Of a stretch of DNA of 64,000 nucleotides, positions 4,229 to 58,745 are shown in pieces; within the stretch, counting starts at the first letter, position 1, and each line of letters begins with the position of its first letter. The notes under the pieces are model-generated. The model had not been told where the DNA came from, searched no databases, and saw only the letters and a list, made by a program, of their open reading frames with translations. This DNA comes from Nicotiana tabacum (Eukaryota; Streptophyta; Magnoliopsida; Solanales; Solanaceae), in contig NC_134090.1 of the NCBI RefSeq assembly GCF_000715075.1, forward strand, positions 47,127,792 through 47,191,791, given 5' to 3'. Made by a program: the position numbers and the translations under genes.

Positions 4229-6351
4229 CTAAGGAACAGCCTTGATGTTGATCACTGGAAGCTGAGTTACTGGTTTTATAATAACAGGCTCTGTGCGAGC
4301 ACCCTTCACGACCACAATAGGTTTACTTGCAACCCCTGGTACTACCATTTTAGCTTTCTCTGGTTTCACTGCGACAGTGCTTGACGACCCTTTCTCGGCT
4401 ACCATAGCTGGCTTATTGTCTACCCCTTTCAACTGGACCACTAATTTCCCACTGGTTACCTTCTCCTTTGAACTGGTTTCGCTGGAACGGATCATCATTA
4501 CTGTCTGCGAGGGTTTCTTAGGCTCCTCTCCTTTGTGTACCAACTCAATTATATGGGTCTCATGGCGAGTTGGCAGTGGATTATGATTGATATTTGGTGC
4601 TTCTGGGGCCTGGACCTCGATCCGATGAGTATCAATAAGCTCTTGCACATCTATTTTTAGTTTCCAACACTTCTATGTATCATGCCCAGGGGCCCCTGAA
4701 CAGTACTCATAACTCACCAAGTGGTCAAGATTTCTAGGAGGGGGATTTGGCATTTTAGGCTCAATTGGATTCAGCATGCCCAACTGCCTCAACCTGTGGA
4801 AAAGACTGGTATACGATTCCCCCAGTAGAGTGAAAGTCTTTTGCTTCTGTAACCTCTCATTCTTGAAGGCTTGGCTTGGTCGAAAACCCGTTCTGGGGGG
4901 GATTTCTGTAGGCTCTTGGGGGTGGATATGTGTTTTGTAGAGCTGGGTATGGATTTTATGGAGCCAGCGCATGCCATTGTGCGTGTGTCGGGGTTTGGGT
5001 ATAGGTTTGTGCCTGATGGACGGAAAATTGGGGATCTGGTGGTGGGTAGTATTGTTGTGGAGGGCTATATGGAGTGTGAGGGTAATTTTGGTGGTAGGGT
5101 CGGGGTTGGTTATAGTAGGGTGATGGGCCTCCAGATCTGAACCAGGCTCCGGACTTAATCGTCGCAACATCTTCTTTCTTCATTTTCCCAAGTACGCTCC
5201 CAGTGCCATTTTGGATGGCCTGGGTGGTTGCCTTGATTGCTGAATAACTCATGATCTTGTTGGACTTAAGTCCCTCCTTGACCATGTCTCCCATTTTTAC
5301 AACATCATTAAAAGACTTGCCGATTGCGGACACCAAATGACCAAAGTAGGTCGGCTCTAACGCCTGCAAAAAGTAATCAACCATCTCGCTCTCTTTCATT
5401 GGGGGATCTAACCTTGCTGCCTGCTCTCTCCATCGGAAACCATATTCTCTGAAGCTTTTACTGTGCTTCTTCTCCAGTTTAGTCAAGGACAGTCGGTCTG
5501 GAATGATCTCAAGATTATACTGGAAGTGACCAGCGAACGCTTGTGCCAGATCATCCCATGTGTACCATCTTCCATGATCTTGGCGGGTGTACCATTCCAA
5601 TGTTGATCCACTCAAACTCTGACTGAAGTAAGCCATTAACAATTATCTTTTCCTCCGGCTCCCCTCATCTTATTGCAAAAACCTCCTAAGTGTGCTACTG
5701 GATCACCGTGCCCATTGTATAGATCAAACTTGGGCATCTTGAAACCTGGAGGTAATTGCACATTTGGAAACAGACATAGGTCCTTGTAGGCCACACTTAC
5801 TTGACCTCCTAATCCTCGCATGTCCCGGAATGACTGTTCTAGGCTCTTAACTTTCCTGAACATCTCCTCATGTTCGGGAATTTTGGCTGGTCTCTCAGCT
5901 TCTCTCGGGAGATCAGAACGTGGATTATAGGGGTAGGTTTCGGGAGCTTTGAAGGTGGGCTCCGGGGGATAGTACTGGTTGTCCTAAGCTTGGAACATAG
6001 GCTCACTCGAGGATCTATGGAGTGCAGCTGGTGGAGATGCCACAAAGACAGGGGTGACTGGCGGAGGGGGTATGGAATTGATTTTGGTAGTGGAGCTTGT
6101 GGCATATGAGAAGTAGTGCCATGGTAATGTTGGTAAATGGGAAAGCTTGGATCGATGGCAGGATGATCCTGAGCCTGAGCCGGTGGTGGGGTGGAAGCAG
6201 GGTTAGCAGGGTAAGCTGGGGGTGATTGTCCTTTAGACCAGGCCTGATACATCTCGGCCATCTGTTGCTTAAGTTTGAGCATCTCCTCTTTCATTTTACT
6301 GACGTCCAACTCCTCTACCTCAACACTTGTGTCGACATCCGGGATAGACAT
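4229..6351 (-). pseudogene. gag: gag of element A, frameshifted
   Basis: Gag builds the particle and binds RNA. The start at 6351 gives an acidic coil (VEELDVSKMKEEMLKLKQQMAEMYQAW), a Pro-rich stretch, then the Tat capsid core (MPKFDLYNGHGDP, GSTLEWYTRQD, FRWREQAARLDPPMKE) and a Pro/Tyr/Gln-rich linker. Near 4710-4670 is a zinc-knuckle remnant (YCSGAPGHDT, then a TAG, then KCWKL) whose first Cys is replaced by Tyr. Frame changes near 6100, 5640 and 4980 and stops at 4673 and 4229 break it. Element E carries the homologous gene, which confirms the domain order. Confidence 0.88.
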
Positions 6352-6943
6352 GATTTCTGGTATTGGTCCTTTTGATCTAGTTTGGTAATGATAATGTGCT
6401 AGTATCCTCTAGATAAACTAACTGCTTGAATTCTCTACAAAACAACAACTTGTTAGTTTTTAGAGTTTAACACATATGTAATTTCACGTTGGGATGCAAT
6501 GCACCTAGGCAATTAACCATTTTCTATCATGCATTTGTTTCGGTTGCGTGCGTCATTCCGGCCTCTCATAATTGTGCCCCTTCTTTTAAGCTTCCTTTAT
6601 TCTATCCTCCTTTATTTATTTTTCATTTCCCCCTTTTCTTTTTAGTGGTGGTCAAATCCTATAGAGATTGCCTATGTATCATATCCCCGCATGAATCAGA
6701 CCGTGCGTAGTTCTGGCAGATAAGTGCACAAGTAAACAGCTCTAAAAAAACAAATGCTTCCATTACAAACCTCAAAACTAACAAATTCCAAAAGACTAAC
6801 AGATTCTGATGCATAGACAAAATACAGACTCCGAAAATAAACTATCATACTCCAACAAAAGGAAATACAGAACAGAAAGAAAATACAAACTCAACATGAC
6901 CGACAGAATTTAACCGAAACGGAAATACATACTTCATGAGAAA
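6352..6943 (-). other. Spacer between ORF1 and gag of A, with conserved motif copy 2
   Basis: No gene is visible in this 590 nt. It contains the conserved motif at 6655-6715: on the minus strand AGAACTACGCACGGTCTGA and then GATACATAGGCAATC. The same motif stands in the equivalent place of element E (50931-51005) and, in a diverged version, before ORF1 of both elements. It is preceded on the element strand by A-rich sequence. Function unknown; see findings. Confidence 0.7.
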
Positions 6944-8985
6944 TCATGAATACATCAATGCTCCTGGTGCCCGCGGGGCATCATTCGGTCTCGCCGCGGG
7001 CCTATATGCAAGATCCCTTTGAAGTCGGTCCAAGCTACTCATTATCTGCCTAACAAATGTCATCACTGCTGCGAAGAAGGTAGTGCGAGTCATATCCTCA
7101 CAGATCTGACACTTCATAACGACGTAGTTGGCGATGTTTCTAATTCTCTCTCTTATGACGCATTTTTCTTGTAACAAACGCCCAATCTGCTGGGCCCTGG
7201 CTTCCAAAGTTTGGTCAAACACATGATTCTGCTCCTGAAGTTGTTGCAAGTCTATTTCTAATTGCGCCAAGGTCGTATAACAATGTTCCCTTTCAACCCT
7301 GAAGTCTTTTGCCTGTTTGATCATTTTGTTTTCTATGGCGATGACCCTTTTCTTTAGCCCTGCAACCTCATTGTCATACTTTTCTTTCAGCTGCTTAACC
7401 AGACGTGCTCGTTCTGCCGAGTTTTCGGCCAATTGTTTTCAAGCCCTGGTTAATTCACTTTCTGCTTTGTTCAGATCAAAATTATATTCACCCACTTTCC
7501 ACCTCAGGTTATCTATAAGTTTTTCATCTTTGGCACTTCGGGTGGGGTTTTTTGCAACTATTTTCATCTTTTGAATTTGGGCTTGAAGGGCCTCATTTTC
7601 TTTAGCTAGTTTCTTTTTCTCCCCCTCATCTGCGGCGGCCTGCAGATCTTTCTCAAACTGCAACTCCATGACTTGCTTCTCCAATCTGCCTATTGTGGCC
7701 ATGTACTTATGTTCTTTAGCCAACCAATCCCACTATTCTTGCGACGCCCCGATGAACTCCTGGAGATGGGGTCTCTTGGCCGGCCTCCCAAACTCGATTT
7801 CTCTCCTATACCAAGCAACGTATCCTGGCAAAACTTCACCTTTGGACCGATCATGTACACATGTATTTGCCGTTAAGTATTGACACTCGCTCCAAATTTG
7901 GCGGACTGCTGCTTCGTGAAATTGTCCGTTAGGCCCGATCTCGACCACTTGGCCACTAAGATCTTCATCTTTCGGAACTACTTGGCATATCCCCAACTGC
8001 CTCAAAACTCGATACGGGGCATAGGGTTGGATACTCCTGAGTCCCATCAAAAGGAAATGGGGTCCAGTGGCTGGTATATATATGATTTCATCCATAGGCA
8101 GCCATCCAAATGTCCACTATATTTGGCTTGCAGTGACGGAACGGAGGCGCGCTATCCACTCTGTGACCCCTTCTGGCAAGCTGATTCCATCAACCCTCGT
8201 AGAAAATTCCTCTATTCATGTTTTCTCTGTCGACCCATAACTCATAAATTGAGGATGACGGCATATGTGTTTGATCATCCACATCTGCAGCAACACGTTG
8301 CACCCCTCAAAAATGTCTCCCCCAACTTTGCAGGCTGTGAGAGCGCGAAAGATTTCAGCTACTATCATGGGTGCGAGGGTGCTGTTGGCCTGAGTAAACA
8401 AAGTGCTGACAACCCCGGCTGCTCGTATCTCAATATTCCCATCTTTTCTAGAAAACACCTAAAGTCCCAAAAAGGCCACCATAAATGCAAAACATCTGTG
8501 TTCTTCCCACTTAAGGCGGTTTCCCTTGCTGCAGATTTTGTTTTCCGGCTTGTTGAACCCCCTATATGACCATATCTGTTGTATATAAACTGCAAAGTAC
8601 AAAAACTAGCTGCCAAGTCTGGGTTGTGGACCTCCCTACTTATTTTCAAAGAGTCTAGGAACATGTGCACGGCTATGGCCCTCGGAGCAATTAGGTACTG
8701 GTGTCTTAGAGGAACTTTTGGACCCCTAATATATCCGGCTATTTCTTCCAATGTTGGGGTAAGTTCAAAATCTGAGAAATGAAATACGTTGTAAGCCGGG
8801 TCCCAGAATGTGACCAATGCCTTTATGATATCCCCTTTGGGATTAATTTTCAGCAACCCAGCGAGGCCTCCCAAGTATACATTGACTGTGTCTCGCCCTG
8901 ATTTGCCCAAGTCATCCCACCACATGTGCAATTCCAAAGGGATCTTGTTCATAATTGTTACTGGTAAATTCTGGCTTGTGCTCAT
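6944..8985 (-). pseudogene. Ogre ORF1: mobile-domain-like head, coiled-coil tail
   Basis: This extra ORF precedes gag and is diagnostic for Ogre-type elements; its function is unknown. I chose the second ATG (8985, MSTSQNLP) because element E starts with a similar Met-Ser. Residues 1-200 contain ELHMWWDDL and FELTPTLEEIAGYI, resembling plant mobile domain proteins. The C-terminal 250 residues (7723-6944) are heptad-rich (LEKQVMELQFEKDLQ, LKKRVIAIENKMIKQ), a predicted coiled coil. One frameshift lies near 8550 and stops at about 8461, 8216, 7733 and 7439; the last two look like Trp-to-stop changes. The protein may multimerise, but that is a guess. Confidence 0.8.
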
Positions 8986-10171
8986 TCTGCACATTTATTA
9001 AGGTGATTAATCATGATTTACTCTATTTTGAATAAAAAATGACCCTTTTTCAGATTTTTGTTTCTAAAACCAAAAGCCCAACTTTGCAAATACGGCCTTT
9101 CAGTACTTCCGGAGGGAGATTTTAAGGCTGTGCCTGCTAACTGGCCAAAAATTGGAAAAAGACCAAAGGTGGTTGTTTATGCGAAATCAGCCTTCCGGCG
9201 TCCCTTTCGGGAACATTCGGCTATTTTTGATAAAAACAGCATCACCTTACCTATTTACAGTAAAATAATTTTTTTTTTGTTTCGGGCTATTTTTGGCAAA
9301 AAGAAGTTGGACCCGATGAGGGTTGCCTACGTATCCCATATCCTGTGAGAATCAAACTGACGTAGTTCGCAAATAAAACAAACTATTTTTGAAAACAAGA
9401 TTCTTTTTTCATTTTATTGGCAAAATAAACAAACTATTTTTGAAAACAAATCTTTTTTCTTTTCCTTCTCCTTTTTTTTCTTTTTCTTATTTTTTTAAAT
9501 TTTCTCAAAAATACGGCAGAGTTTCGGCACTATTTGGACATTGTTTTTTTTTCAAAACAGGCGATTAACTCTCTTTAACCCTCATACTGCTATTTCTCTT
9601 TCCTCAAAATATTCCAAAGTCGGTCAGCATGCAAGTCCGAAGCAAATAAATGCACAAGTAGCAAGTAAGATGCATCAGGATGGTCTTTTTCTTTTTTGGT
9701 ACACCTGTCCTAGACAAACCCAACCCCTGTGTTGCGCCTCCAAAGTCAAATGCACATGATGCACACAAACATTCCTATTAGGGATCCGACATGAAGCTGA
9801 GTTATTCTAGGTTCAAAGCCTGGGTATTTGTTCTAGACTGTGTACCCGAGAGGACAACTAGAGCCGAGGAGGGGGCTACGTACCGGGAACCAAAAGGCCA
9901 TCCGGCTTAGTAACTTGTTCGAGCCTCTTTCTTATTTCAAGGTATGACACTAATAGAATAGGGAGTCTCGACCAGCGAGCACATCCCTGAAGGTGAGAAG
10001 AGAAGGTTTTCGTAGCAGTTTATATACAGTTCAGATAATATCAAAGCCGTAAAAGCAGCATTTAGCACATTAGGCCCAAACATGTAAAAATCAGATAATA
10101 AACAAAGCCAATTATAACAATTATTCCAAGCTCGAATTCTCGAACCCTAAACCAGAAGTTCTGGGTTCCAG
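8986..10171 (-). other. 5' leader of element A, with conserved motif copy 1
   Basis: This 1.19 kb lies between primer site and ORF1. No coding sequence is apparent. A-rich runs (T-rich on the plus strand, 9380-9560) occupy its middle. At 9301-9370 lies the leader version of the repeated motif: on the minus strand GCGAACTACGTCAGTTTGA, then GGGATACGTAGGCAACC. The matching copy in element E is at 48111-48179. The long leader probably holds packaging and translation signals, by analogy with other LTR elements. Confidence 0.75.
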
Positions 10172-10189
10172 TCCCCAGCAGAGTCGCCA
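10172..10189 (-). promoter_or_regulatory. Primer binding site of element A (tRNA-Arg type)
   Basis: On the minus strand it reads TGGCGACTCTGCTGGGGA, three bases after the LTR end TGTGACA. This 18-mer is the primer site known for Ogre elements and complements the 3' end of a tRNA-Arg; it starts minus-strand cDNA synthesis. It fixes the element strand and the LTR boundary. Confidence 0.92.
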
Positions 10190-26865: not shown

Positions 26866-27589
26866 TGTGATGACCCAAAAGGTCATCACTTGTTTTAAAA
26901 ATAAATTATGTATTTCGAGGCCTTAAAAACCTCTTCCAACATTACCTCAATTTGCGTGTGTAGTCCGGGCGCATAGCCGGAAAGCCATTATGTGAAAATC
27001 TGTGAAAAATGATGAATTTTGACTTTAAAATGAATTTAAGTTGACTTCGGTCAATATTTTGGGTAAACGGACCCGGACTCGTGATTTGATGGTACCGGAG
27101 GTTCCATAAGAAAATATGGGACTTGGGCGTATGCCCATAATCGAATTCCGAAGTCCCAAGCCCGAGAAATAAATTTTTAAAGAAAATTATTTTTTGGAAT
27201 ATTTATGAGTTTTTGGAAATGAAATGTGTTTAAAATTTAATAGTATCGGGCCCGTATTCCAGTTTTGGAGCCCGGTACAGGTCTTATATGTGATTTATGT
27301 TGAGTCTGTGAAATTTGGTATGAAATGGACTTCAAATGACGTGAATCGGACCGTATTTGAGAAAATTGGAAAATTTGAAGTTCTTAATTGATTTCATGAT
27401 TTTGATGCTAAATTCATAGTTATTGATGTTATTTTGGCAATTTGATCGCACGAGTAAGTCCATAAGGTGTTTTTAAGGTAGTGTACATGTTTGGTTTGGA
27501 GCCTCGAGGGCTCGGGTGAGTTTTGGATAGGTCTCGGAAGGTTTTTGAACTTAGGAAAATTGCAGAAACTGCTATTCTGATGCACAGGC

Positions 27590-28327: not shown

Positions 28328-29082
28328 TGTATGCGGTGAAATCAGGGGGGTCTATTTCCCGTCGTTAAGGTATATTCGAGATGACATATCAGCATCACGA
28401 GGCTACAGGTTTACGATCGAGCTCCCTCCCTCGAGGTTCGTCCACGACCCAGCAACGATTCCGAGGATAGGGAATTTGTCCGTGACCTAATGAAGGTGCC
28501 GAGGGCGGGGGATTCCCGAGGCAAGCAGCTAGAATCAGTAAACACTAGTACCATGCCTAACCGTCCCATCCCCGTGTCTTTACATTCAATGCACTCTGTA
28601 CTATATGGTATTCCCTCTCCTATATAAGGGGAATCCATGCCACTTTGTAAAGGGCTGATGTTGCTCCATTTCTCCACAAGTGCAATAATATCTCTTTCTC
28701 TCTCTTCTTTCTAACTTGCTCGTTCTCACTGGCCTGAGGCCACTTTAATATTTATCGCTTTCTCACTTGTTCTTCATTTTATCGCTTGATATTGGCCATA
28801 AAGAGCTTTATTTAATCATATCTTAACTATTATCCTATTTTCGATTGCCCCCGATAGCTCAAGCTCGACCTGAACACCGACCCCGAGGTCCTCCATTGAC
28901 CAGTCCTGCATCCGAGCAATAGGCCCCTCAGTTTGATTATTGCCTCGTTTTAGCTTGCATTTCATTGTTAAAATTCATATTCTTAGCATCAACTGCTCTA
29001 AACAACTAGCTCGAGAATAGATTACGTATTTTTAGAATCTCATTTATAAATTTAATTGTTGTTACCATTTTTACGGTAAACA
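28328..29082 (+). repeat. 5' LTR of element B
   Basis: TGTATGCGGTGAAATC... to ...TTACGGTAAACA. A TATA-like CCTATATAAGGGG lies near 28620, followed by a C/T-rich leader, as expected of a pol II LTR promoter. It differs from the 3' LTR by scattered substitutions and small indels, so the insertion is not recent. Confidence 0.9.
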
Positions 29083-38109: not shown

Positions 38110-38856
38110 TGTATGCAGTGAAATCAGGGGGGTCTATTTCCCACCGTTAAGGTACATTCTGGAAGGCATATCAGCATCTCGAGGCTACAGGATTACGATG
38201 TAGCTCCCTTCCTCGAGGTTCATCCGCGACCCAGCAAAGATTCCGAGGATAGGGAATTTGTCCGCAACTCAACGAAGGTGCCGAGGTCGGGGGATTCTCG
38301 AGGCAAGCAGCTAGAATTAGTAAACACTAGTACCATGCCTAGCCGTCCCATCCCCCGTATCTTTACATTCAACTCACTCTGTACTATATGGTATTCCCTC
38401 TCCTATATAAGGGGAATATATGCCACTTTGTAAAGGGCTGATGTTGCTCCATTTCTCCACAAGTGCAATAATATCTCTTCTTTCTAACTTGCTCGTTCTC
38501 ACTGGCCCAAGGCCACTTTAATATTTATCACTTTCTCACTCGTTCTTCATTTTACCACTTGGTATTGGTCATAGAGAGCTTTATTTAATCATATCTTAAC
38601 TGTTATCCCAATCCCGATTGCACCCGATAGCTCGAGCTCGACCCGAACACCGACCCCGAGGTCCCCCATCGACCAGTCCTACATCCAGGCAACAAGCCCC
38701 TCGGTTTGATTATTACCTCGTTTTAGCTTGCATTTCGTCGTTAAACTTCATATTCTTAGCATCAACTACTCTAAACAACTAGCTCGAGAATATATCACGT
38801 ATTTTTAGAATCCCATTTACAAATTTAATTGTTGTTACCAATTTCACAGTAAACAA
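38110..38856 (+). repeat. 3' LTR of element B
   Basis: TGTATGCAGTGAAATC... to ...TTCACAGTAAACA, collinear with 28328-29082 apart from small indels (for example one shorter CTCTTTCT run near 38480). Followed by the target duplication ACCTA at 38857-38861. Confidence 0.9.
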
Positions 38857-46550: not shown

Positions 46551-47350
46551 TGAATGCAGGGTCATGAGAGAATATAATTAATTGGGGCTAGATATATTTT
46601 AAGGCCTATTACTAGAAAGTAATTGTGAGGGAGCAAAATGAGTCATGAAGTAACTCACTACTCGTTCTAATATGTAAATAAATAAATAAAATAAAAATAC
46701 ACAAATAAATGTCTCGAATCTGAAAGAGACAAAACAAATAAAATACTCTAAAATACTGGAAAAACTTTAGATGCACTTTAAATATTAGCCCATGTGTTCA
46801 TACCCGAACCATGGATTGATATGCTAAAATAATAAAAGGATCATGTGCGCATTCCGCGTTTCGATGCCTTTAAATTTAAAATAATTATGTTACAACCATG
46901 TGTACATTTCGTACCTTGGCTTAACATTTAATTTTAAAGAAGTACCTTGTGTGCGTACCGCATATTGGTGAACACAATTAATAAAATATAATAATTATTT
47001 GTGCGGTCATAAATAAGCTATAATCAATAAACATACAAGAATAACCAAAAATTGATGTAAGCCTTACATTAGTCAATAAAACGACCATGCTAGAACCACG
47101 AGACTCGAGTGGTGCTTTACACCTCCCTCTCGGTTAACAAAATTCCTTACTCAGTCTTCTGTTTTCGTAGACCAGAAATTAGGAGTCAAATCTTCCTTGT
47201 AAATAAATGGTGACTTGGAACACCAGAACTCATTTCCAAGTGGCGACTCCAAATAATAAATAATCCCTTTTCAAAACGTCACTTCAATTGGAAAAACTCT
47301 TCTAACTCTACCTCGTAATAAGGGTTGCATGGAAAAAAATAGGTGTGACA
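46551..47350 (+). repeat. 5' LTR of E, downstream part
   Basis: Ends AGGTGTGACA at 47350. Shares with A the block ATGCTAGAACCACGAG and CGGTTAACAAAATTCCTTAC (about 47090-47150) and the primer-like TGGCGACTC at 47241. This shared block supports the Ogre assignment. Confidence 0.82.
47241..47249 (+). other. Primer-site-like nonamer inside LTR E
   Basis: TGGCGACTC equals the first nine bases of the true primer site 114 nt downstream, mirroring element A. Confidence 0.7.
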
Positions 47351-47354
47351 GCTC

Positions 47355-47372
47355 TGGCGACTCTGTTGGGGA
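47355..47372 (+). promoter_or_regulatory. Primer binding site of E (tRNA-Arg type)
   Basis: TGGCGACTCTGTTGGGGA; differs from A's site by one C-to-T change. It lies four bases after the LTR end. Confidence 0.9.
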
Positions 47373-48608
47373 CAATTAATAAGAATTCGAGCTTTGTATA
47401 TTGATTCTTGTTTGGCTTTTATCATGTTTTGGATATTATTGTGTTTGGGAGCCTAATGTGCTATTTGTCGCTTATTTACCGCTTTAATATTTATTTGAAC
47501 TGTGATATAAATCGTATCCTCTCTCGCACCCCTTTGAGTCCTCTGATAGGTAGTTATGTTATGTTTGCCTACCAGCATCACAAAATTTCTGTCTTGAGAT
47601 AAAGCCAGTTAGCCTACCAGCTTCTGGTGAAAGATTTAGTCACACATGTTTAGGCAGGATAGCTGTTAGCTAGCCAGTGTTGTTCTACTACTGGTGACGC
47701 TTGACGCTCCTCGGTTCGGGTTGTCCACCCAGGTAAGCCAGGTCTAGATACCATCTCCTTTAGGATTTGAAACTTAGAAGAACAAGCTACAAGCAATGAA
47801 TTTCCCTAGTAGGCTATGCCTTATTTGCATCATGTGCATTGGACTTAGCGAGACTCGGCACAAGGGTCGGGCCCGTCTAGGATAGGTACCAATTTTTCGG
47901 ACCAACATATTCATCTTTATGTGCTATATGTAATATTATTTGGTAGGCTTCACTCAAATGTTGACCGGCTTTAGGATAGATTGATTGAACAGAGGAGAGA
48001 GAAAGAGAAAATTTCCAAGTTTTCATAAAATACCCGTTTTTTAAAATAAAATTTTGAAGGGTTTTGGTATGTAAAATTACAATTTTCAAAATAGTTTTTT
48101 AGTAATTTTAACCAAACTACGCGGGTTTGATTCTCACCGGATGTGAGATACGTAGGCAACCTTCATCAGGTTCAACCCCATTTTAAAAAAAAAGAATTAA
48201 AAAAAAAACAAAAAAAGGTTGTCTATGGACTATTTTTTTTTCAAATAATAATAAAATAATATAGTTACTTTGTCAAATTTTTATCCCTTTTGACCAGTTT
48301 TGCCCTTGCGTCCAATCCTTTTATCGAAATAGACTTGAAACCTTCCTCGAAATGCGAAATAGGAAGCCAGTTTATTTTTTTTTAATTTTAATTTTTATGT
48401 TTCACTTGTTTTTACAAAAAATAGTCATTTTTGAGTTTTTTTTATTTTTTTAATTTCATGATTATTTTACCAATTTAATTTTTTTCAGTCCCATAGTTTA
48501 GTTTTTTATTTTTATTTTTATAGAATCAAAACCCGAGACATCAGATTTTTTGTATCAATAATATATTTGATTAAAGTCTAACCACGTGTCTGGGTAAACA
48601 AATACATC
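47373..48608 (+). other. 5' leader of E with conserved motif copy 1
   Basis: 1.24 kb, about the same length as in A (1.19 kb). No coding sequence. The repeated motif is at 48111-48179 (AACTACGCGGGTTTGATTC, then GAGATACGTAGGCAACC). A/T-rich runs follow it before ORF1. Confidence 0.75.
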
Positions 48609-50631
48609 ATGAGTGCAGAAAGAGGTAAGTCTGAAAAGAGGCCCAGATCAGAAGGGATACCAGATTTTCTAATTGTCGATCAGATACCGCACTTGTTGTG
48701 GGATTGATGGAGAGACTTTAAGGAATATGAGCAAAAACAGATAAAGAAGTACTTGAGACATTTGGTTCACATGATGATGATCAAGCCCAGGAGAGATGTG
48801 ATTGAAGCTTTGATTCCGCACTGGTATCCTGAAAACAATGTGTTCCGTTTTACCGACTGTGAAATGACTCCGACCTTGGAGAAATCGCCCATTTCTAGGG
48901 GTGGGGCCGTAATATTCGCTGCCAAAAGCCCATAGTACCAAAAAATATGAATGAGGGTAAGTTTTTGAAGCTTTTTAACATAAATTACGGACAATATGAA
49001 GGTTTAGGAGGCAAGTGGATTAAGTTAGGATTTCTGTTTCACTTGTATGGCCTAGAAAGCAATTTCGAAAGGAATGTTGGAAAACTAAAGTCAAAGGAAA
49101 ATAAGGAAATATGGAAGGTTCATGGAAGGTTTGCATTTATGGTTACTTTTTTGGGGCGTGTAGTTTTCCCAGAAAGGGAAGAAAGCATTGACATCCGCTT
49201 GGTAGGTGTAGTTAAGGCTCTGACTTCAGAAGGGGATGATTATACTTTGGTCCCTATGATTCTTTCTTGCATTTTTCGTGCTTTAACTAGATGTAAATTG
49301 GGCGCGCGAAACTGTGATAACTGTAACATTTTGTTCCAATTATGGTTTTTGGAGCATTTTTATCGTCATCCTATGATCATTGATTTTAGGAAGCTATGGC
49401 CCAATCATACTTATGATCACCAGAAAGAGTTGATGAATGTGACTTACTAGAATGGATTGATGCCTGAAAAGAACTACTTCTTACTTTGTCCGCCAAACGG
49501 ATCACTTGGAACTACGATTGGTTTTTCTCTAAAGAGTTCATTTGTGAGTCTGCATACCATTCTTATTTGGTACTCATAGGATTGGATGGTGTTCAGCCCA
49601 ATGCTCCACTTCCGGTAATACACCAATTTGCACGACGACAAGAGGTGCCACCAACCCGAGATATGATCAAGTTCTGTTATGATTTTGGTAAAGATCAACC
49701 TCATGTCGAAGAGGAAATTATGAAAATTAGGTATGTAAGTAAAATATCGGAGTTGAATAAGATGGTAGAAGACCGAGATCGTTGAGAGGTGATCCTTGAA
49801 TATATTACTTGGTTTCATGATCCTTCGTCGTTTAGAGATAGGCTTGAGGGGTTGAGCGGGAAGAGAAATGATCAAAGAACTATAGAAAAGCTGAAAGAGG
49901 AATTGGAGCATGCTCAGATGACCATAGCCAAACAACAAGCCCAACAGCAAGCCGAAGTCGCTCAGATTCATTTGAACATTGAGAAAGATTATCAATCTGC
50001 CTTGTGGGTCATGGATAAAGATCTAAAGTATGCTAAAAATGAGGCAGCCCGCTTAGAAGAAGAACTGGAAAACACGATTGGCTTAGTCAGAAGAGTTGAG
50101 GCGAACAAAAATGCTGAAATACATAAGTTGCAAGAAGACTTGAGTATCATTGAAGAGGATGCGCACCAACAAAAACTGGAGTTTGATCAGTATAAAGAGC
50201 AGTTTGAAGCAGAAAGGGCCCACTGGATACGCTCAAAGAGTCAGCTTTGTGCATAATTAGAAGAAATAAAAAGGCAGACGAGGGGTCATCAACATACAGA
50301 TTTTGAGGCAGAGCGACGTCAGTGGATGATTGAGAAAGGTGTGCTAAAGCGTTGCATTGAAGAATATGAGGGACATGAGGCTCAGATGGGGCACACCCTT
50401 AACATTACCCAGATGTGGTTGCAGAATTGCCACGCGAATATGGGGCAAGCCAAAGAGCAGGTACTTCGATTGGCAGAAAAAGAAGCATATATTCATGACG
50501 ATCATCGCCATCTAAACAATGAGAAAGTTGGTCAACAGGAACATGCCATCGTCCCACAGTTGCCAGCTGTGTTTCAAAATCTATACAAGACTTTGTGGGG
50601 AGAGTGGAGGCCAAGAGATGCAGACCATTGA
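48609..50631 (+). pseudogene. Ogre ORF1 of element E
   Basis: The ATG at 48609 begins MSAERGKSEKRPRSEG. A TGA at about 48706 replaces Trp. The head (FTDCEMTPTLEK) matches A's FELTPTLEEI and plant mobile domain proteins. Later parts GRFAFMVTFLGRVVFP and CKLGARNCDNCNILFQLW align with A. The C-terminal half is a long coiled coil (KLKEELEHAQMTIAKQQAQQ, KYAKNEAARLEEELENTIG). Stops near 48931, 49450 and 49783 and frame changes near 48945 and 49490 break it. Function unknown, but conserved across both Ogre elements. Confidence 0.82.
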
Positions 50632-51302
50632 TGATATCAGTTTAAGCAAAAAGACCATTGAAGATTAAATTTTTAGTGCAGTCCATTAGTTCTTAGTTTC
50701 ATTTTTATTTGTCGTATTTTTAATTTTATATTTGGAGTCTTTTATTCTTATCAAAGTTTGTTTTATTCCAGTTATGTTTATGTCTTTAGAGTCAGTAGAG
50801 TCAGTTTGTATATATTTCCTTCTCTCATTGTATATAAAAAAAATTGACTGAAAATGAATGAAAAATATTTTAGTTTGTTTTATTTTTATAAAAAAAACAA
50901 TTAAAAAAACATCAGAATTATTATTATTTCCCCTGAACTACGTAATAGTCTGATTCATGCAACGTCATGATACGTAGGCAATCCTTATCGGATCCGATCA
51001 TAGCCATAATTAATCTAAAAAAAAATAAGTCAAAAAAGAGAAAAAAGGAAAAAAAACCCGTTAAATTCACAAGGAAATAAATCAGAAAGCCGGGATGACA
51101 CATGAAGCCTTCCAAGATCATTTTAGAAATGAAAATGGCATTAGGTGCATGACATACTATGTGTGATTAATATATGCAAAATGCCTAACTCTAACACGTT
51201 TGTTGTTTGTCATCTTAAAGATAAAGTTAAACAGATGTGGTTGGTTTGTGGTTTAAACTGGCGACTCACCCTTACAACATGATATCAAAAGGAAAAAGTA
51301 GA
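50632..51302 (+). other. Spacer between ORF1 and gag of E, with motif copy 2
   Basis: No gene. The motif at 50931-51005 reads GAACTACGTAATAGTCTGA, then GATACGTAGGCAATCC. Flanked by A-rich and T-rich runs. Confidence 0.7.
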
Positions 51303-53508
51303 ATGTCAAACAATAGTGAGAATGAGTCAGATAATGATGATGTCCATGGATAATTGGTCGAACAAGGTTCGGGACTGGTTGAAGAAGTAAGAGTGTTGAA
51401 ACAACAATGGGCAGAGATGTACCAAGCCTGGGTGAATGGACAGGCACCACCCTCACTACCCATAGGGCCTTCGGATAATCTTCATAATGTGTCAGTTGCA
51501 AATCAAGTGCCCATCTCCATAACAAGTAACCCATTGTACCAACCTGGATTCGGTCCGAGCATTAACCTTCCCACTATTCCCAGTACCTCCATTCCACGTC
51601 CTTCAACCGCACTCCTCAGAAATGACCCACCTACTGTACCCATTGTCCCTACTTTCACTATTCCTCAACCAGCTCCCGCTCAAAAGCTCAACAATGATCC
51701 ACAACTGAATGCTCATGATGCCTCACATTACTCTCCAGAATTGACTTTCAAGGTTCCAGATTAATACAAGCATACTCCTCAAAACATATTCCCAATTGAG
51801 ATCGAAAAACCCAACAACAATATGGAATAAGAGGAAATGACCAAAAAATGAAGAGCTTGGAACAAACCATGAGAAACATACATGGTTTGGGAGGCCACAA
51901 AAGTGTTTCACTTAATGATTTGTGCATGTTCCCCCATGTTCATTAGCCACCTAGCTTCAAGACCTCTAACTTTGACAAGTATGACGGGCATGGTGATCCC
52001 GTTGCTCATTTGAAGAGGTATTGTAACCAATTGAGGGGAGCAGGAGGCAAAGAAGAATTACTCATGGCTTATTTTGGGGAAAGTTTGACAAGAATTGCTT
52101 CAGAGTGGTTCATAGATCAAGACATCTCTCACTGGCACGTTTGGAACGACATGGCTCAAGATTTTGTACAACAATTTCAGTACAATATTGATATAGTGCC
52201 AGACCGCTCCTCTCTTGTCAACAAAAAGAAGAAACCAACAGAAAGCTTCAGAGAATATGCAATCAAGTGGAGAGAGTAGACTGCTAGGGTCAAACCACCA
52301 ATGAAAGAGGTAGAAATGATTGACTATTTTCTCCAAGCTCAGGGTCCTGATTACCTCCATAATATGTTGGCTGCCATTGGTAAACCTTTTGCTGAGGCTA
52401 TTAAGATTGGGGAAATAGTTGAGAATGGCATGAACTCAGGCAAAATTGTAAGTCTGTCAGCCCTTAAGGCGACTACACAAGCAATTCAAAGAGGGTCAGG
52501 CAGTTTCGGAAATCCGAAAAAGAAGGAGGAAGGATCCACGACGGCATCTGGGTTCGGGGGAGTTCAAAGAGGAATAGTTCCTTATTATGTGCAATTCCAA
52601 CAAGTAAAATCCAATTCTTCTCAACATTATTATCCGCCTCAGGGTCCCTGGTACTCAGTTACATCGCAACAATATATAGTGTTTAATGCTCAGGCTTATG
52701 CTAGGCCTCCCAATCACCAACAATGGAGGGAACCGATTCCACAAGGCTCCCCTCAACTACGGCCGAATTTTTAGGCGCCATATAATCCTCATCCCAGACA
52801 GGAATATGTGAGAGAACAGGAGTCAAACAAAGAGTTCACCCCAATTTGAGAATCATATACAAGCCTATTTCGAAAGTTGAGTAGTTGAAGTTGATTGAAC
52901 CTATCATGTCGCGTTATGTGAATCCAAATTCAAAAGGTTTTGACTCCAATGAAAGATGTGAGTATCACTCTAACACCCAAGGTCATAGTACCGAAAATTG
53001 TTGGATATTGAAGAAAGCAATTGAAAATTTGATTGAAGCAAAGGTAATTGTGGTGACAAACAATGAGGATACTCCTAATATCACAAACAATCCAGTCCCA
53101 GCTCATGATAATACACATTTTATTGGGATGATTTGTGATGATCGAGATTATAAGCAATATGGCAAGACAAAGATGGTTGTTGGAACCATAGGGCAAGAGC
53201 CAAAAGTGATAGTAAGCCCGCCGCAATTGGCACCATTGATTGTGAAAGGTTCGAGTTCTAGTTCAAACTTGGCAAGTTCTGAAAAAATGGTTCTCTATGT
53301 CCCTGGAAGCACAAAAAAGGTTGAGGTTCAATTGGGTGTGCCAAAACTTTTCATCCCTAGGGTCATTCAAAAGATTGTTCCGAATAATGGTTTGAGAAAT
53401 ATAACAAATCCAGTTGTGATCCGACATATTGCACAACTTCCAGTGACAAACACAAAAGCTATTCCCTGGAATTATAACAAGACTGTTATGACATACAAAG
53501 GAAAATAG
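51303..53508 (+). pseudogene. gag: gag of element E, frameshifted
   Basis: Starts MSNNSENESDNDD (51303) and meets TAA at 51351. The coil EVRVLKQQWAEMYQAW matches A. The capsid core appears at 51960-52350 (FDKYDGHGDPVAHLK, GESLTRIASEWF, YNIDIVPDRSSL, FREYAIKWRE), with TAG at 52277. Then come GSGSFGNPKKKEE, a Tyr/Gln/Pro-rich linker, and the knuckle CEYHSNTQGHSTENC (C-X2-H-X5-H-X4-C) near 52960-53003. Frame changes lie near 51760-51960 and 52840. The frame from 52885 ends with TAG at 53506, in phase with the protease. Confidence 0.87.
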
Positions 53509-54853
53509 ATAGTGGAAGAAACAGATGAAATGGGGGGCTTGACCCGCTTTGGAAGGTGCTACTCACCAGAGGAATTGAGAAAAGCTAAGCAAGCCAGGGA
53601 AAGTCACTTGCCAATGAAAGAACCCGTTGCAGAAAAAGAAGCGGAGGAATTCCTGAAGAAGATGAAAATGCAAGACTACTCAATTATTGACCAACTAAGG
53701 AAAACCCCTGCTCATATATCTTTGTTATCTCTGCTTTTGCACTCGGAAGAGCATCGCCGTGTGTTGATCAAAACTTTGAACGAAGCATATGTCTCGGAGA
53801 AGACAACGGTAAATCAGCTAGAAAAAATGGCTAAAAGATTCTTTGAAGTAAATAGAATTACTTTCAGCGATGATGATTTGCTTAAGGAAAGGGCTGGGCA
53901 TAATAAAGCTTTACATCATATGATCAAATGTGAAGGGCACTACATAAAAGGAGTCATAATTGACGGAGGCTCAAGTGTAGATGTATGCCCTCTTTTTACT
54001 CTACATCAGCTGAACATTGACACTAACGGAATTCGGACTAGTAATGTTAGCAGAGCTTTTGATGGTTCAAGAAGAGACATTATTGGGGAAATCGAACTCA
54101 CCATGACAATCGGCCCGGTTGATTTTAATATTATCTTTCAAGTGTTGGATGTGAAAACTTCCTATAATTTTCTTCTGGGAAGGCTGTGGATCCATATGGC
54201 CAGAGTTGTACCATCCACCCTACATCAAATGGTCAAATTCGAGTATGACATGCAAGAAATTATTGTTCATGGCGAGGACGACTCATCCGTCTACAATAAC
54301 CCGTCCATTCCATATATCGAGGCCAAGGAAGGATGTGAATCTATCATATATCAAGCATTTGAGGTGATTGAGGTGGACCAAGTGGAAGAAGGAAAACCAA
54401 TTCTGCATCCCCGTCTTTCAGCCACATCTATAATGGTAGCTTTGCTGATGTTGAGGAACGGCTATGAACCAGGAAAAGGATTAGGATCCTCTCTGCAGAG
54501 AATTGTGAACCCCATTGCTCCCTTTTCGAAGAAAAATACCTTTGGTTTGGGTTTTAAACCAACATCATCTGACCTAAACAGAGCCAAGGCCCGTAAAAAG
54601 AATGGTTGGAATTTGTCCAAACCAATCCCTCACATTGCCTACTCTTTTGTCAAACCGCAATTTGAAGAAGTCCAAAATCATTCTACTCAGGATGACATTG
54701 ATGAAGTTTGTCAGGGTCTCAGGAGATGTTCTATGAGATCAATATGGTCCAAGTTGGTGAGGGCCCCAGCCGTGCAAGTGTTCAATTGATTGGCCCAGAT
54801 ACCTTGCCCAACAATTGAGAAGCAACTCCTCTTCCCATAAGGAAGGAGTCTTG
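53509..54853 (+). pseudogene. Aspartic protease with G-patch-like tail, element E
   Basis: LTRFGRCYSPEELRKAK aligns with A. Active site GVIIDGGSSVDVCPLFTL has Asp-Gly-Gly-Ser, then TSYNFLLGRLWIH. The G-patch-like segment is GYEPGKGLGSSLQRI with NTFGLGFKP. The listed frame stops at 54789, but after a one-base shift near 54720 the tail lines up with A up to the donor at 54853/54854, with one TGA on the way. The tail ends in LPIRKESW before TAG in unspliced RNA, as in A (LPTRKESW). Confidence 0.87.
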
Positions 54854-54972: not shown

Positions 54973-55846
54973 TGTGATGACCCGAAAGGTCATCACTCAT
55001 TTTAAAAATAAATTCTGTGTTTCGATGCCTTAAAAACCTCTTTCTGTCTTACCTCGATTTGCGTGCGTGGTCCGGGCACGTAGCCGGAAAGCCATTATGT
55101 GAAAATCAATGAAAATGATGAATTTTGCCTTTAAAATGAATTTAAGTTGACTTCGGTCAACATTTTGGGTAAACAGACCCGGACCCGGACCCGTGATTTG
55201 ACAGTCCCGAAGGGTTCGTAGGAAAATATGGGACTTGGGCGCATGCCCAGAATCGAATTCTGAGGTCCCAATCCCGAGAAATGAATTTTTATAGAAAATA
55301 TTTTCTAGAATATTTATAAGTTTTTGGAAATGAAATGTGTTTGAAATTTGATGGTATCGGGCCTGTATTCTGGTTCCGAAGCCCTATACCGGTTTTATAT
55401 GTGATTTAAGTTATGTTTGTGAAATTTGGCAAGAAACAAACTTGAAATGACGTGAATCGGTCTTTATTTGAGAAAAATTAAAAAATTTAATGTTCTAAAG
55501 TGATTTCATGATTTTGATGCTAAATTCATGGTTATTGATGTTATTTTGAAGATTTGATTGCATGAGCAAGTCCGTATAATATTTTTAGGTTGGTGTGCAT
55601 GTTTGGTTTAGAGCCCCGAGGGCTCGGGTGAGTTTTGGATAGGCCACAGAGTAAAATTTGCACTTAGGAAATTGCTGGTATGTTGAATGCATGCAGGCTT
55701 CGCATTTGCGAATTCTGGCTCGCAAATGCGAGAAGTCCATCGCAAATGCGAACAAAGTCTTGGGCATGTCTAATCACAAATGCGACCATTTGGGTCGCAA
55801 AAGCGGAAGGCCCCAGTCACAAATGCGACGCCTGACTCGCAAATGC
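54973..55846 (+). repeat. 5' LTR remnant of D
   Basis: Collinear with 57803-58640. It contains the start of the palindrome block (55697-55846; CGCAAATGCG words) and ends where CGCAAATGC runs into ATCTCGTATTGGAC of RNase H. Confidence 0.9.
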
Positions 55847-57747
55847 ATCTCGTATTGGACTTGGTGCAGTGTTGATGCAAGATGACAAGGTCATTGCTTA
55901 TGCTTCGCGGTAGTTGAAGATTCATGAGAAGAACTATCCGTTTCATGATATGGAGTTAGCATGCATTGTTCATGCATTGAAGATTTGGAGGCATTATCTA
56001 TATGGCGTGGCATGTGAGGTGTTCACGGATCACAAGAGTCTGCAGTACTTTTTCAAGCAGAAGGAGCTAAATTTGAGGCAGAGAAGGTGGTTGGAGCTGT
56101 TGAAAGGTTATGATATCACCATCTTATATCATCCGGGAAAGGTCAATGGGGTGGCCGATGCTTTGAGTAGGAAATCATCTAGTATGGGCAGTCTTGCGTA
56201 TATTTCGGTCGGTGAGAGACCGCTTGCTTTGGATGTTCAGTCTTTAGCCAATCAGTTCATGAGGTTGGATGTTTTTGAGCGCAGCCGTATGTTAACTTGC
56301 ACAGTTGCTCGTTCTTTATTATTGGAGCATATCCGAGATCGGCAGTATGATGATCCTCATTTGTGTGTCCTTAGGAACACGGTGCAGTACGGAGGTGCCA
56401 AACAGGTTACCTTAGGAGATGATAGAGTTTTGAGGCTGCATGGTCGAGTTTGTATGCCTAATGTGGATGGGCTCCGGGAGTTGATTTTAGAGGAGGCCCA
56501 TAGTTCCCGGTACTCTATATCCAGGCGCTGCAAAGATGTATCAGGATTTACGGCAGCATTATTGATAGAGGAGAATGAAGAAGGACATTGTTGCATATGT
56601 GGCTCGGTGTTTGAATTGTTAGCAGGTTAAGTACGAGCATTAGAGACCTGGTGGGTTGTTCAAGAAGATTGAGATTCCCGAGTGGAAATGGGAGCGTATC
56701 ACTATGGACTTCATTGTTGGACTCCCATGAACTCAGAGGAAGTTTGATGCAGTGTGGGTTATTGTTGATAGGCTGACCAAGTCAACACATTTCATTCCGG
56801 TGGTAGTGTCCTATTCTTCCGAGAGGTTAGCTAAGATCTATATCCAAGAGATTGTTCGTCTTCATGGTGTGCCCGTGACTATCACTTGGGACCGAGGTAC
56901 GCAATTTACCTTACATTTCTAGAGAGTAGTTCAGCGGGATTTGGGCACACGGGTTGAGTTGAGCACATCGTTTCATCCTCAGATGGATGGGCAGTCCGAG
57001 CGGACTATTCAGATTTTGGAGGATATGCTCCGAGCTTGTGTCATTGACTTTTGAGGCTCGTGGGATCAATTTTTGCCTTTAGCAGAGTTTGCCTATAACA
57101 ACAACTACTAGTCGAGTGTTCAGATGGCTCCTTATAAGGCTTTGTATGGTAGGCAGTGTCGGTCGTTGGTTGAATGGTTTGAGCCGGGAGAGGCTCGGTT
57201 GTTGGGTACGGATCTAGTACACGATACCTTGGACAAGGTCAGGATTATTCAGGATAGGCTTCGTACAGCTCAGTCCAGGCAAACGAGTTATGCCGACCGT
57301 AAGGTTCGTGATTTGGCTTTCATGGTCGGGGAGCAGGTATTGCTTCGGGTGTCGCCTATGAAGGGCGTGATGAGATTTGGGAAGAATGAAAAGTTTAGCC
57401 CTAGGTTCATTGGCCCGTTTGAGATTCTTGATTGAGTGGGAGAGGTGGCTTACAGACTTGCGTTGTCGCCGAGCTTATCAGCCGTGCATCCAGTATTTCT
57501 TGTGTCCATGCTTTGGAAGTATCTTGGCGATCCATCCCACGTATTAGATTTCAGCACTGCCCAGTTGGTCAAGGACTTGTCCTATGAGGAAGAGCAGGAA
57601 GCTATTCTAGACCGGCAGGTTCGTCAGTTAAGATCGAAGAGATTTCCTTCTGTTCGTGTTCAGTGGAGAGGTCAGCCTGCTGAGGCATCGACCTGGGAGT
57701 CTGAGTTGGATATGCGGAGCCATTATCTCCATCTTTTCCCCGACTGA
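55847..57747 (+). pseudogene. pol: RNase H, integrase and chromodomain of D
   Basis: RNase H from [16 protein letters not shown] sequence through [20 protein letters not shown] and [10 protein letters not shown] to [11 protein letters not shown]. Integrase: zinc-finger part around 56520-56640, core Asp in ITMDFIVGLP, second Asp in WDRGTQF (Trp where Ser is usual), Glu in GQSERTIQ. The C-terminal part has YADRKVRDLAFMVGEQVLL and the GPFEIL motif, then the chromodomain (SYEEEQEAILDRQVRQLR, VQWRGQPAEASTWE), thought to target heterochromatin. In-frame stops near 55910, 56626, 56651, 56728, 56920, 57050, 57110 and 57433, and a frame change near 56517, inactivate it. Confidence 0.92.
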
Positions 57748-57791
57748 GGTACTTCCTTCTTATGTCTGTTTGCGGACGAACGGTTGTTTTA

Positions 57792-57802
57792 TAGGTGGAG
57801 GA
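57792..57802 (+). promoter_or_regulatory. Polypurine tract of D
   Basis: AGGTGGAGGA(T) just before the 3' LTR TGTGATGACC; plus-strand primer. Confidence 0.75.
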
Positions 57803-58525
57803 TGTGATGACCCGAAAGATCATCACTCGTTTTAGAAATAAATTTTGTGTTTCGATGCCTTAAAACCACCTTTTGTCTCCCCTTGATTTGCGTGCACAAT
57901 CCGGGCGCGTAGCTGGAAAGCCATTATGTGAAAATATTTGAAAAATGATGAATTTTGCCTTTAAAATGAATTTAAGTTAACTTCGGTCAACATTTTGTCT
58001 AAACGGACCCGAACCCATAATTTGACGGTCCCGGAGGATTCGTAGGAAAATATGGGACTTGGGCTTATGCACGGAATCGAATTCCGAGGTCCCAAGCCCG
58101 AGAAATGAATTTTTAAAGAAAATTGTGTTCTCGAATATTTATGAATTTTTGGAAATGAAATGTGTTTGAAATTTGATGGTATCGGGCCCATATTCTGGTT
58201 TTGGAGCCCGATACAGGTTTTATATATGATTTAAGTTGAGTCTTTGAAATTTGGTACAAAACGGACTTGAAATGACGTGAATCAGACCTTATTTGAGACA
58301 AATTGGAAATTTTGATATTCTTAAGTGATTTCATGATTTTGATGCTAAATTTATGGTTATTGATGTTATTTTCCGGAATTGATTGCACGAGCAAGTCCGT
58401 ATGATATTTTTAGGTTTGTGTGCATGTTTGGTTACGAGCCCCGAGGGCTCAGGTGAGATTTGGATAGGTCACAAAGTGAAATTTGCACTTAGGAAATTGC
58501 TGGTATGTTGCAGGCCTACAGGCTT

Positions 58526-58745
58526 CGCATTGGCTCGCAAATGCGAGAAGTCCATCGCAAATGCGAACAAAGTCCTGGGCAGGCCTGATTGCAAATGCGA
58601 CCATTTGGGTCGCAAATGCGACGCCTGCCTCGCAAATGCGAACCCCTCAGAAATAAGGGGTGGTTGCAAATGCGATAATTTTCTTTGCAAATGTGAAAAT
58701 TGCAGTCCTCTGAAGGGTTCGCAATTGCGAACCCTGGTCACAATT
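58526..58745 (+). repeat. Palindrome block in 3' LTR of D
   Basis: Eight or more CGCAAATGCG / TCGCAATTGCGA-type words in 220 bp, starting 723 bp into the LTR. Confidence 0.78.

What the first reader, a model, noticed from the sequence alone, without database searches (positions are those of the whole stretch)
48111..51005. A conserved 65 nt noncoding motif occurs twice per Ogre element, before ORF1 and before gag
Core: AACTACG, about 8 nt, (T/C)TGATTC, about 12 nt, GATACRTAGGCAAYC. Copies: 48111-48179 and 50931-51005 in E; 9301-9370 and 6655-6715 (minus) in A. The two pre-ORF1 copies resemble each other more (GGATACGTAGGCAACC...TCATC) than the pre-gag copies (TGATTCATG...GGCAATC), so the duplication predates the A/E split and each version was kept by position. 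Its place before each of two reading frames suggests a role in translation initiation, splicing or packaging. GTTTGATTC also loosely resembles a tRNA T-arm / B-box, which may be chance.
Basis: seen in the sequence. Interest (0 to 1): 0.78.

Follow-up and report, generated by a model that had tools for sequence, protein, structure and literature searches.

The report
Duplicated folded RNA motif in Ogre
Two large plant jumping genes of the Ogre type each carry the same 59-letter non-coding sequence twice, once ahead of each of their first two genes, and matched letter changes suggest it works as a folded RNA, probably to help switch on the gene that follows.

Summary
A 59-60 nt core occurs at 48115-48173(+), 50936-50995(+), 9309-9367(-) and 6654-6712(-); no other copy was found in the window. 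In both elements one copy lies 742-804 nt after the primer site and 314-435 nt before ORF1; the other lies 302-307 nt before gag. It holds the most conserved 60-column block of each leader (51/60 and 46/60 against means of about 26 and 29). Copies group by position (9 sites, against 0 by element and 4 crossed), so the duplication predates the A/E split. New here: two hairpins, P2 and P3, with five pairs changed on both sides; column shuffles reach the consensus-fold energy in 2 of 2000 trials. Single copies are not unusually stable, and four copies cannot tell sense from antisense. Keeping both copies argues for a local role at each reading frame. I favour help in starting translation (about 0.3), ahead of packaging/export and a structured alternative 3' splice site; none is shown. 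Rfam has no match, and none of nine paper-search listings showed a description. Wider sampling failed: the genome search did not complete.

The parts
48115..48173 (+). Motif core, element E, pre-ORF1 copy. P2 stem 48132-48136 with 48144-48148; P3 stem 48158-48162 with 48168-48172
50936..50995 (+). Motif core, element E, pre-gag copy
9309..9367 (-). Motif core, element A, pre-ORF1 copy
6654..6712 (-). Motif core, element A, pre-gag copy (CATAG instead of CGTAG; breaks one possible P1 pair)
48174..48233 (+). A-rich tract after the motif (34 A in 60 nt; top 0.5% of leader windows; best window starting within 40 nt of the motif)
9242..9301 (-). A-rich tract after the motif (28 A in 60 nt; top 8.6%; the leader's maximum of 41 A lies upstream of the motif)
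50997..51056 (+). A-rich tract after the motif (40 A in 60 nt; the leader's maximum)
6584..6643 (-). A-rich tract after the motif (37 A in 60 nt; the leader's maximum; 52 of 60 purine)
47355..47372 (+). Primer-binding-site sequence of element E (TGGCGACTCTGTTGGGGA)
   Evidence: with a recalled pattern; assignment to tRNA-Arg recalled
10172..10189 (-). Primer-binding-site sequence of element A (TGGCGACTCTGCTGGGGA)
   Evidence: with a recalled pattern; assignment to tRNA-Arg recalled
48609..50660 (+). ORF1 region of element E, interrupted by stop codons; plant mobile domain in 48947-49447
   Evidence: ends approximate
6945..8994 (-). ORF1 region of element A, interrupted; DUF7745 in 8368-8994
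   Evidence: ends approximate
51303..52774 (+). Start of the gag region of element E, in pieces; assigned by position and by similarity to element A
   Evidence: no Pfam match for the piece scanned, 52301-52771
5839..6351 (-). First gag-region reading frame of element A; assigned by position
   Evidence: no Pfam match
47730..47738 (+). Best splice-donor-like site of leader 1 in E (CAG|GTAAGC); A has the weaker CGG|GTACAC at the aligned column. Part of a rival model only
   Evidence: with recalled rough matrices; position checked

Best explanation
The motif is a cis-acting RNA element in the genomic transcript of Ogre retrotransposons, one per ORF leader. It folds into two adjacent hairpins: P2, between TGAT and TACG, and P3, directly after GGCA. 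An outer pairing, CUACG with CGUAG (P1), is possible. An A-rich stretch follows. Because both copies have been kept, each by position, since before elements A and E diverged, the function is probably local to the reading frame that follows. Most likely it helps ribosomes start on that frame without scanning from the cap (internal entry, cap-independent recruitment or shunting), so that ORF1 and gag can both be made from one long RNA. Shown: presence, positions, conservation, order of duplication and A/E split, paired changes in P2 and P3. Inferred: that the RNA strand is the acting form, that the role is local, and that it acts in translation.
For: Consensus fold found without being told the structure: 14 pairs, 5 with changes on both sides. 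Column shuffles reach its energy in 2 of 2000 (1 of 2000 with local shuffles) and its number of double-changed pairs in 10 and 9 of 2000. P2+P3: 95% of cells paired; 0 of 500 shuffles reach this or the covariation score; slid partners pair in 10-50% of cells. The motif covers the best-conserved block of both leaders, while its flanks in leaders 1 and 2 of one element share little: of the same-element comparisons only an A-rich run in E (3 of 200 shuffles as high) and, marginally, the upstream flanks in A (8 of 200) stand out. Leaders carry 15-17 ATGs upstream of each ORF start, so plain scanning is hard to picture. The 60 nt right after the motif is the most A-rich of the leader in both pre-gag copies and in the top 0.5% in E pre-ORF1. 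A review says the crTMV coat-protein IRES has a bulged stem-loop flanked by purine-rich repeats that it needs, and that the TCV IRES seems to need only A-richness and lack of structure (PMC5382211, passages).
Against: No activity data. The motif ends 302-435 nt before the ORF starts, and 4 (E1), 3 (A1), 10 (E2) and 7 (A2) ATGs lie between, so entry at the motif followed by scanning would not reach gag cleanly. [quoted passage not shown] Single copies do not fold better than shuffles (z -0.41, -0.17, -0.22, +0.60); P2 and P3 are both in the predicted minimum-energy fold of only 2 of 4. The number of distinct double-changed pairs alone is reached by 80 of 500 letter shuffles, and the number of pair types by 194 of 500. 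In A pre-ORF1 the A-rich tract ranks only in the top 8.6%. Four sequences cannot tell the strand: antisense consensus -12.4 against sense -11.4 kcal/mol. Both elements are defective copies.
Confidence: 0.3

Rival explanations
1. Packaging, dimerisation or export signal of the full-length RNA: Gag or a host export factor binds the hairpins, and two copies raise the strength of binding.
For: Both copies lie between a donor-like site (E 47733) and gag, where retroviral packaging signals usually sit (recalled). Small hairpins with unpaired A-rich flanks would suit. Many uAUGs would not matter. CaMV RNA export uses a structured leader (PMC12786077, passages).
Against: A global signal would work from either place, so one of two copies 2.7-2.8 kb apart should have decayed; both are kept (inference). 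Hairpin loops are not conserved except partly in P3.
Confidence: 0.27
2. Structured alternative 3' splice site: one donor in leader 1 (E 47733) joins to the TAG|G of either motif copy, giving an ORF1 RNA or a gag RNA. YTGAT is the branch site, P2 shortens the distance to the AG, and P1 could hide it.
For: YTGAT (fits YTRAY, recalled) lies 24-25 nt before the end of TAG|G in 4 of 4 copies (read). The motif AG is the best column-conserved acceptor of leader 2 and second best of leader 1, and the best column-conserved donor of leader 1 is also the best donor of E. U-rich before and U-poor after the pre-gag copies (T 36 to 15 and 45 to 12 per about 100; the pre-ORF1 copies change less, 42 to 33 and 38 to 31). 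Ogre is known to splice elsewhere (PMC6317226, passages).
Against: Matrices were recalled and rough, and any AG in a conserved block counts as conserved. No pyrimidine tract between branch site and AG. The donor is weak in A (CGG|GTACAC). 3-10 ATGs remain between motif and ORF. The invariant AACTACG and the paired changes in P3 are unexplained. A 2005 paper says no intron upstream of gag had been reported, Ogre included (PMC1142308, passages).
Confidence: 0.22
3. DNA-level site: an internal promoter or protein-binding palindrome, perhaps a tRNA-derived Pol III box.
For: CTACG...CGTAG is an inverted repeat. A TATATAAA lies 105 nt upstream of the E pre-gag core (by eye).
Against: No tRNA, no Rfam match. 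The TATA-like run is absent at the aligned place in A (by eye). Paired changes in hairpin stems are not expected of a DNA site bound as a duplex.
Confidence: 0.08
4. Neutral relic of a leader duplication that brought in ORF1.
For: Same motif at both ends of ORF1.
Against: Flanks of the two copies have lost nearly all detectable similarity while the motif keeps 33 of 61 columns invariant in all four copies, and stems changed in a paired way.
Confidence: 0.05

Closest known systems
Ogre elements of the Tat clade (Ty3/gypsy, OTA), as host of the motif
   Same: Extra ORF before gag with plant mobile domain/DUF7745, long leaders, primer-site sequence TGGCGACTC-CTGGGGA type. PMC6317226 (passages) reports the plant mobile domain in 57% of Ogre elements and large non-coding regions in OTA elements.
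   Different: No structured repeated leader motif is described in the passages read or seen in the search listings.
Plant viral IRES elements (crTMV coat protein, TCV)
   Same: A-rich or purine-rich sequence, in crTMV with a bulged stem-loop, upstream of an internal reading frame (PMC5382211, passages).
   Different: Here 302-435 nt with 3-10 ATGs separate motif and ORF, and 33 of 61 motif columns are invariant. The review says the A-rich elements seem to need lack of structure, and that the GAAA-repeat result was apparently not repeated.
Pararetroviral ribosome shunt (CaMV, RTBV)
   Same: Leader full of uORFs. Both pre-gag copies hold a 6-codon uORF ending at the conserved UAG, just before hairpin P3; RTBV and RTSV uORFs have 7 and 6 codons and end 7 and 8 nt before a stem (PMC5902531, passages).
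   Different: The pre-ORF1 copies do not have it (1 codon in E, 30 codons in A). P3 has only 4-5 pairs, not a large stable stem.
Retroviral packaging signals
   Same: Structured leader RNA upstream of gag (general knowledge).
   Different: Two copies about 2.7-2.8 kb apart flanking a whole ORF; no conserved dimerisation loop seen in the alignment.
TPP riboswitch P4-P5 arm
   Same: Loose likeness of CUGAU...CGUAGG (recalled, not a test).
   Different: No Rfam match at gathering level and no TPP hit up to E = 10 for the two E copies (the A copies were not searched at that level).

Membership tests
Ogre (Tat clade) retrotransposon, host elements A and E | Extra ORF upstream of gag with plant mobile domain or relative | tested here: met
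   A: DUF7745 E = 9.5e-10; E: PMD E = 9.9e-9, 35.2 bits against a cut-off of 34.9. ORF1 relatives in Nicotiana and Solanum.
Ogre (Tat clade) retrotransposon, host elements A and E | tRNA-type primer-binding-site sequence upstream of ORF1 | tested here: met
   18-nt site, 0 mismatches in A and 1 in E, 0.04 expected. The pattern and its tRNA-Arg assignment are recalled; that it abuts the 5' LTR was not shown.
Ogre (Tat clade) retrotransposon, host elements A and E | Intron between protease and RT frames; second RNase H domain | not tested
   Not looked at. A G-patch, an RT and RT-type RNase H domains were seen.
Ogre (Tat clade) retrotransposon, host elements A and E | Pair of long LTRs | not testable with these tools
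   Both elements run off the window; self-comparison shows no LTR pair for A or E.
Known Rfam RNA family | Score above a family's gathering threshold | tested here: not met
   0 matches in the whole window.
Structured cis-acting RNA | Compensatory changes beyond chance | tested here: met
   5 double-changed pairs; 2 of 2000 column shuffles reach the energy, 10 of 2000 the pair count. Only four related sequences; 80 of 500 letter shuffles reach the count of double-changed pairs for the given stems.
Structured cis-acting RNA | Single sequences fold better than shuffles | tested here: not met
   z -0.41, -0.17, -0.22, +0.60.
Structured cis-acting RNA | Strand preference (sense RNA) | tested here: inconclusive
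   Sense -11.4, antisense -12.4 kcal/mol; pairs kept in all four: 14 of 14 sense, 13 of 16 antisense.
Internal ribosome entry site | Drives translation of a downstream frame in a two-gene RNA | not testable with these tools
   Needs an experiment.
Ribosome shunt element | Short uORF ending just before a stable stem, then an unstructured landing site | tested here: not met
   Short uORF in 2 of 4 copies (pre-gag only); the stem is 4-5 pairs.
3' splice site | Branch site, pyrimidine tract, AG | tested here: inconclusive
   YTRAY-like site and AG in 4 of 4; no pyrimidine tract; no transcript data.
tRNA or Pol III element | tRNA fold | tested here: not met
   ARAGORN 0 genes in the window. A and B boxes were not scanned for separately.

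The most novel reading that the evidence does not exclude
A portable RNA module of about 60 nt, kept in one copy per reading frame, lets a very long retrotransposon RNA express ORF1 and gag separately: a so far undescribed class of plant internal translation-start (or frame-choosing) element that Ogre duplicated when it gained ORF1.
Probability: 0.25. Interest if true: 0.85.

Novelty: new variant of a known kind. Interest (0 to 1): 0.6.

Why it matters
How the large plant retrotransposons translate ORF1 and gag behind long leaders full of ATGs is open: a 2005 paper says virtually nothing is known of the unusually long region between LTR and gag in Diaspora and Ogre (PMC1142308, passages). A short, foldable, duplicated element in front of each frame gives a concrete object to delete, probe and count. 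If it is an internal entry or frame-choosing element it would, as far as I know, be new to plant retrotransposons and possibly a useful part for plant expression. If it is a packaging signal, it would offer a handle on what makes Ogre RNA selective.

Tried and rejected
More copies from public collections. Viral contigs pattern scan: 1 match, looked at. Genome contigs pattern scan, with GTACGTAGGCA rather than GATACGTAGGCA: 4 matches in archaea and a bacterium; 2 of 4 were read as sequence. All 5 overlap ORFs of 51-624 aa, but in L001 the ORF is short and on the other strand, and ORFs are not proof of genes. The covariance model gives 4 of the 5 loci 10.6-12.7 bits near the match and lists nothing for L005, against 75-79 bits for the window's copies. 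I take all five as chance. The search for related loci with RT and with ORF1 in viral contigs: 34 and 1 stretches matched a pattern, none confirmed. A protein search with the translated leader: none. ORF1 protein search: 29 relatives, 20 with species names, 19 Nicotiana and 1 Solanum; this gives the likely host family but no motif DNA.

tRNA/B-box, TPP-like arm and internal promoter were considered and set aside. The uORF-shunt reading fits only the pre-gag pair. P1 (CUACG:CGUAG) cannot be judged: 4 of 5 pairs never vary and one is broken in A pre-gag; RNAalifold prefers another outer pairing, GUYUG:UAGGC. Folding from motif to ORF start gave no single large stem shared by the copies (by eye).

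Literature: in the listings of nine searches I saw no paper that describes the motif; most listed papers were not opened, and several searches listed only part of the matching papers. ATACGTAGGCA occurs as an unbroken string in one paper, on chickens (listing only). The 2008 Ogre splicing paper is not held.
Full report
What was checked. With 2 mismatches allowed, GATACRTAGGCAAYC matches 4 times, each without a mismatch; shuffles give 0.28 on average and 0 of 100 reach 4. A covariance model built from the four finds these four at E about 1e-19 to 1e-20 and nothing else better than E = 0.58 in 64 kb. The sequences used to build a model match it by construction, so only the absence of others is informative.

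Where it lies. Each element has a primer-binding-site sequence, E 47355-47372(+) and A 10172-10189(-). From its end to the first core is 742 nt in E and 804 nt in A. From core end to ORF start: 435 (E ORF1), 314 (A ORF1), 307 (E gag) and 302 nt (A gag), using ATGs at 48609, 8994, 51303 and 6351. ORF1 carries a plant mobile domain or DUF7745 match; a survey reports the plant mobile domain in 57% of Ogre elements (PMC6317226, passages). Relatives of A's ORF1: 29 proteins, 20 with a species name, of which 19 are Nicotiana and 1 Solanum, so the host is probably a member of the Solanaceae. Both ORF1 copies are interrupted and both elements run off the window.

Conservation. In A-against-E alignments the motif holds the best 60-column block in each leader: 51/60 in leader 1 (mean 0.44 per column; 48125-48184 in E) and 46/60 in leader 2 (mean 0.48; 50935-50994 in E). 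Two other blocks of leader 1 are nearly as conserved (49/60 and 47/60), so the motif is not the only constrained part of that leader. Between A and E, the sequence before the pre-ORF1 motif is clearly similar (0 of 200 shuffles as high) and that after the pre-gag motif somewhat (3 of 200), while the sequence after the pre-ORF1 motif and that before the pre-gag motif are not (45 and 85 of 200). Between leader 1 and leader 2, outside the motif, the best match is an A-rich run in E (3 of 200 shuffles as high); the other seven same-element and cross-element comparisons were reached by 8 to 147 of 200 shuffles, the lowest being the upstream flanks in A (8) and A1 against E2 upstream (12). So between the two positions the motif is close to an island.

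Age of the duplication. Pairwise identities: E1/A1 50/59, E2/A2 45/59, A1/E2 44/58, E1/A2 40/58, E1/E2 38/58, A1/A2 38/58. Site patterns: 9 group by position, 0 by element, 4 crossed. The pre-gag pair alone is barely closer than A1/E2, so the case rests on the pre-ORF1 pair and the shared sites. The duplication most likely came before the A/E split, with no sign that the copies within an element have since been made alike.

Structure. Given only the alignment, RNAalifold draws P2 (5 pairs) and P3 (4 pairs), with five pairs changed on both sides. P2 reads UCUCA/UGAGA, UCUCA/UGGGA, UCAUG/CAUGA and UCAUG/UAUGA; P3 changes C-G to U-A between positions, and U-A, C-G, C-G, U-G at its last pair. Shuffling columns within classes of equal variability and gaps, the energy is reached in 2 of 2000 and the number of double-changed pairs in 10 of 2000; with local shuffles, 1 and 9 of 2000. 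With P2 and P3 alone, 95% of cells pair and 0 of 500 shuffles reach that or the covariation score; partners slid by 1-3 columns pair in 10-50% of cells. Including P1: 95%, and 1 of 500 for both measures. Against: single copies fold no better than shuffles; sense and antisense cannot be told apart; the number of distinct double-changed pairs alone is reached by 80 of 500 letter shuffles and the number of pair types by 194 of 500; and four sequences on one tree are few, so relatedness can inflate these counts.

Setting. Each leader has 15-17 ATGs upstream of its ORF start (the 17 before E gag include one at 50631, at the edge of the ORF1 region). Between motif and ORF there are 4, 3, 10 and 7 (E1, A1, E2, A2). 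The best 60 nt starting within 40 nt of the motif is the leader's most A-rich in both pre-gag copies, in the top 0.5% in E pre-ORF1 and the top 8.6% in A pre-ORF1. Both pre-gag copies hold a 6-codon uORF ending at the UAG inside the conserved block; the pre-ORF1 copies do not.

How it may work. If one copy were enough for a property of the whole RNA, the other should have decayed; both were kept, each with its own version. This favours a local job at the following frame: translation start or splice-site choice. I rank translation first because of the fold, the A-rich tract (compare plant viral IRES elements, PMC5382211, passages) and leaders that do not suit scanning. The splice model has some support: a branch-like YTGAT 24-25 nt before TAG|G in all four copies (read), and an aligned donor. 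It lacks a pyrimidine tract, uses recalled matrices and does not explain P3. Packaging or export remains open, since both copies lie between the donor-like site and gag.

Known or not. No Rfam family matches at its gathering score. In the listings of nine searches I saw no paper that describes such a motif; I read passages of PMC6317226, PMC1142308, PMC12786077, PMC5902531 and PMC5382211 only. Papers not held, such as the 2008 Ogre splicing paper, might mention it. The planned wider sample in the window's own genome could not be taken: 16 identical requests did not complete.

Noticed in passing
47213-47249 (+); 10330-10295 (-): Hairpin just upstream of the PBS in both elements, ACTTGGAA/TTCCAAGT in E and ACTTGGGA/TCCCAAGT in A (one paired change), followed by a second TGGCGACTC that repeats the PBS core 114 nt before the true PBS in both.
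   Followed up: partly
47452-47511 and 47828-47887 (+): Two further strongly conserved non-coding blocks in leader 1, 49/60 and 47/60 identical to element A (columns 137-196 and 518-577 of alignment A2).
   Followed up: no
6435 (-): In element A a classic-looking 3' splice site (CTAAC ... TTGTTGTTTTGTAG|A) lies 83 nt before the gag ATG, with no ATG between; E has CTAAC and a T-rich run but no acceptor at the aligned column.
   Followed up: partly
53512-54786 (+): G-patch domain match (E = 6e-8) in a reading frame after the gag region of element E.
   Followed up: no
48488 (+); 8987 (-): Acceptor-like sites upstream of or at the ORF1 start in both elements (TTTTTTTCAG in E, TGTGCAG in A); not at aligned places.
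   Followed up: no
54973-58641, 26865-27563, 28328-29082, 38110-38855: Other direct repeats of 0.70-0.86 kb, 84.6-89.7% identical.
   Followed up: no
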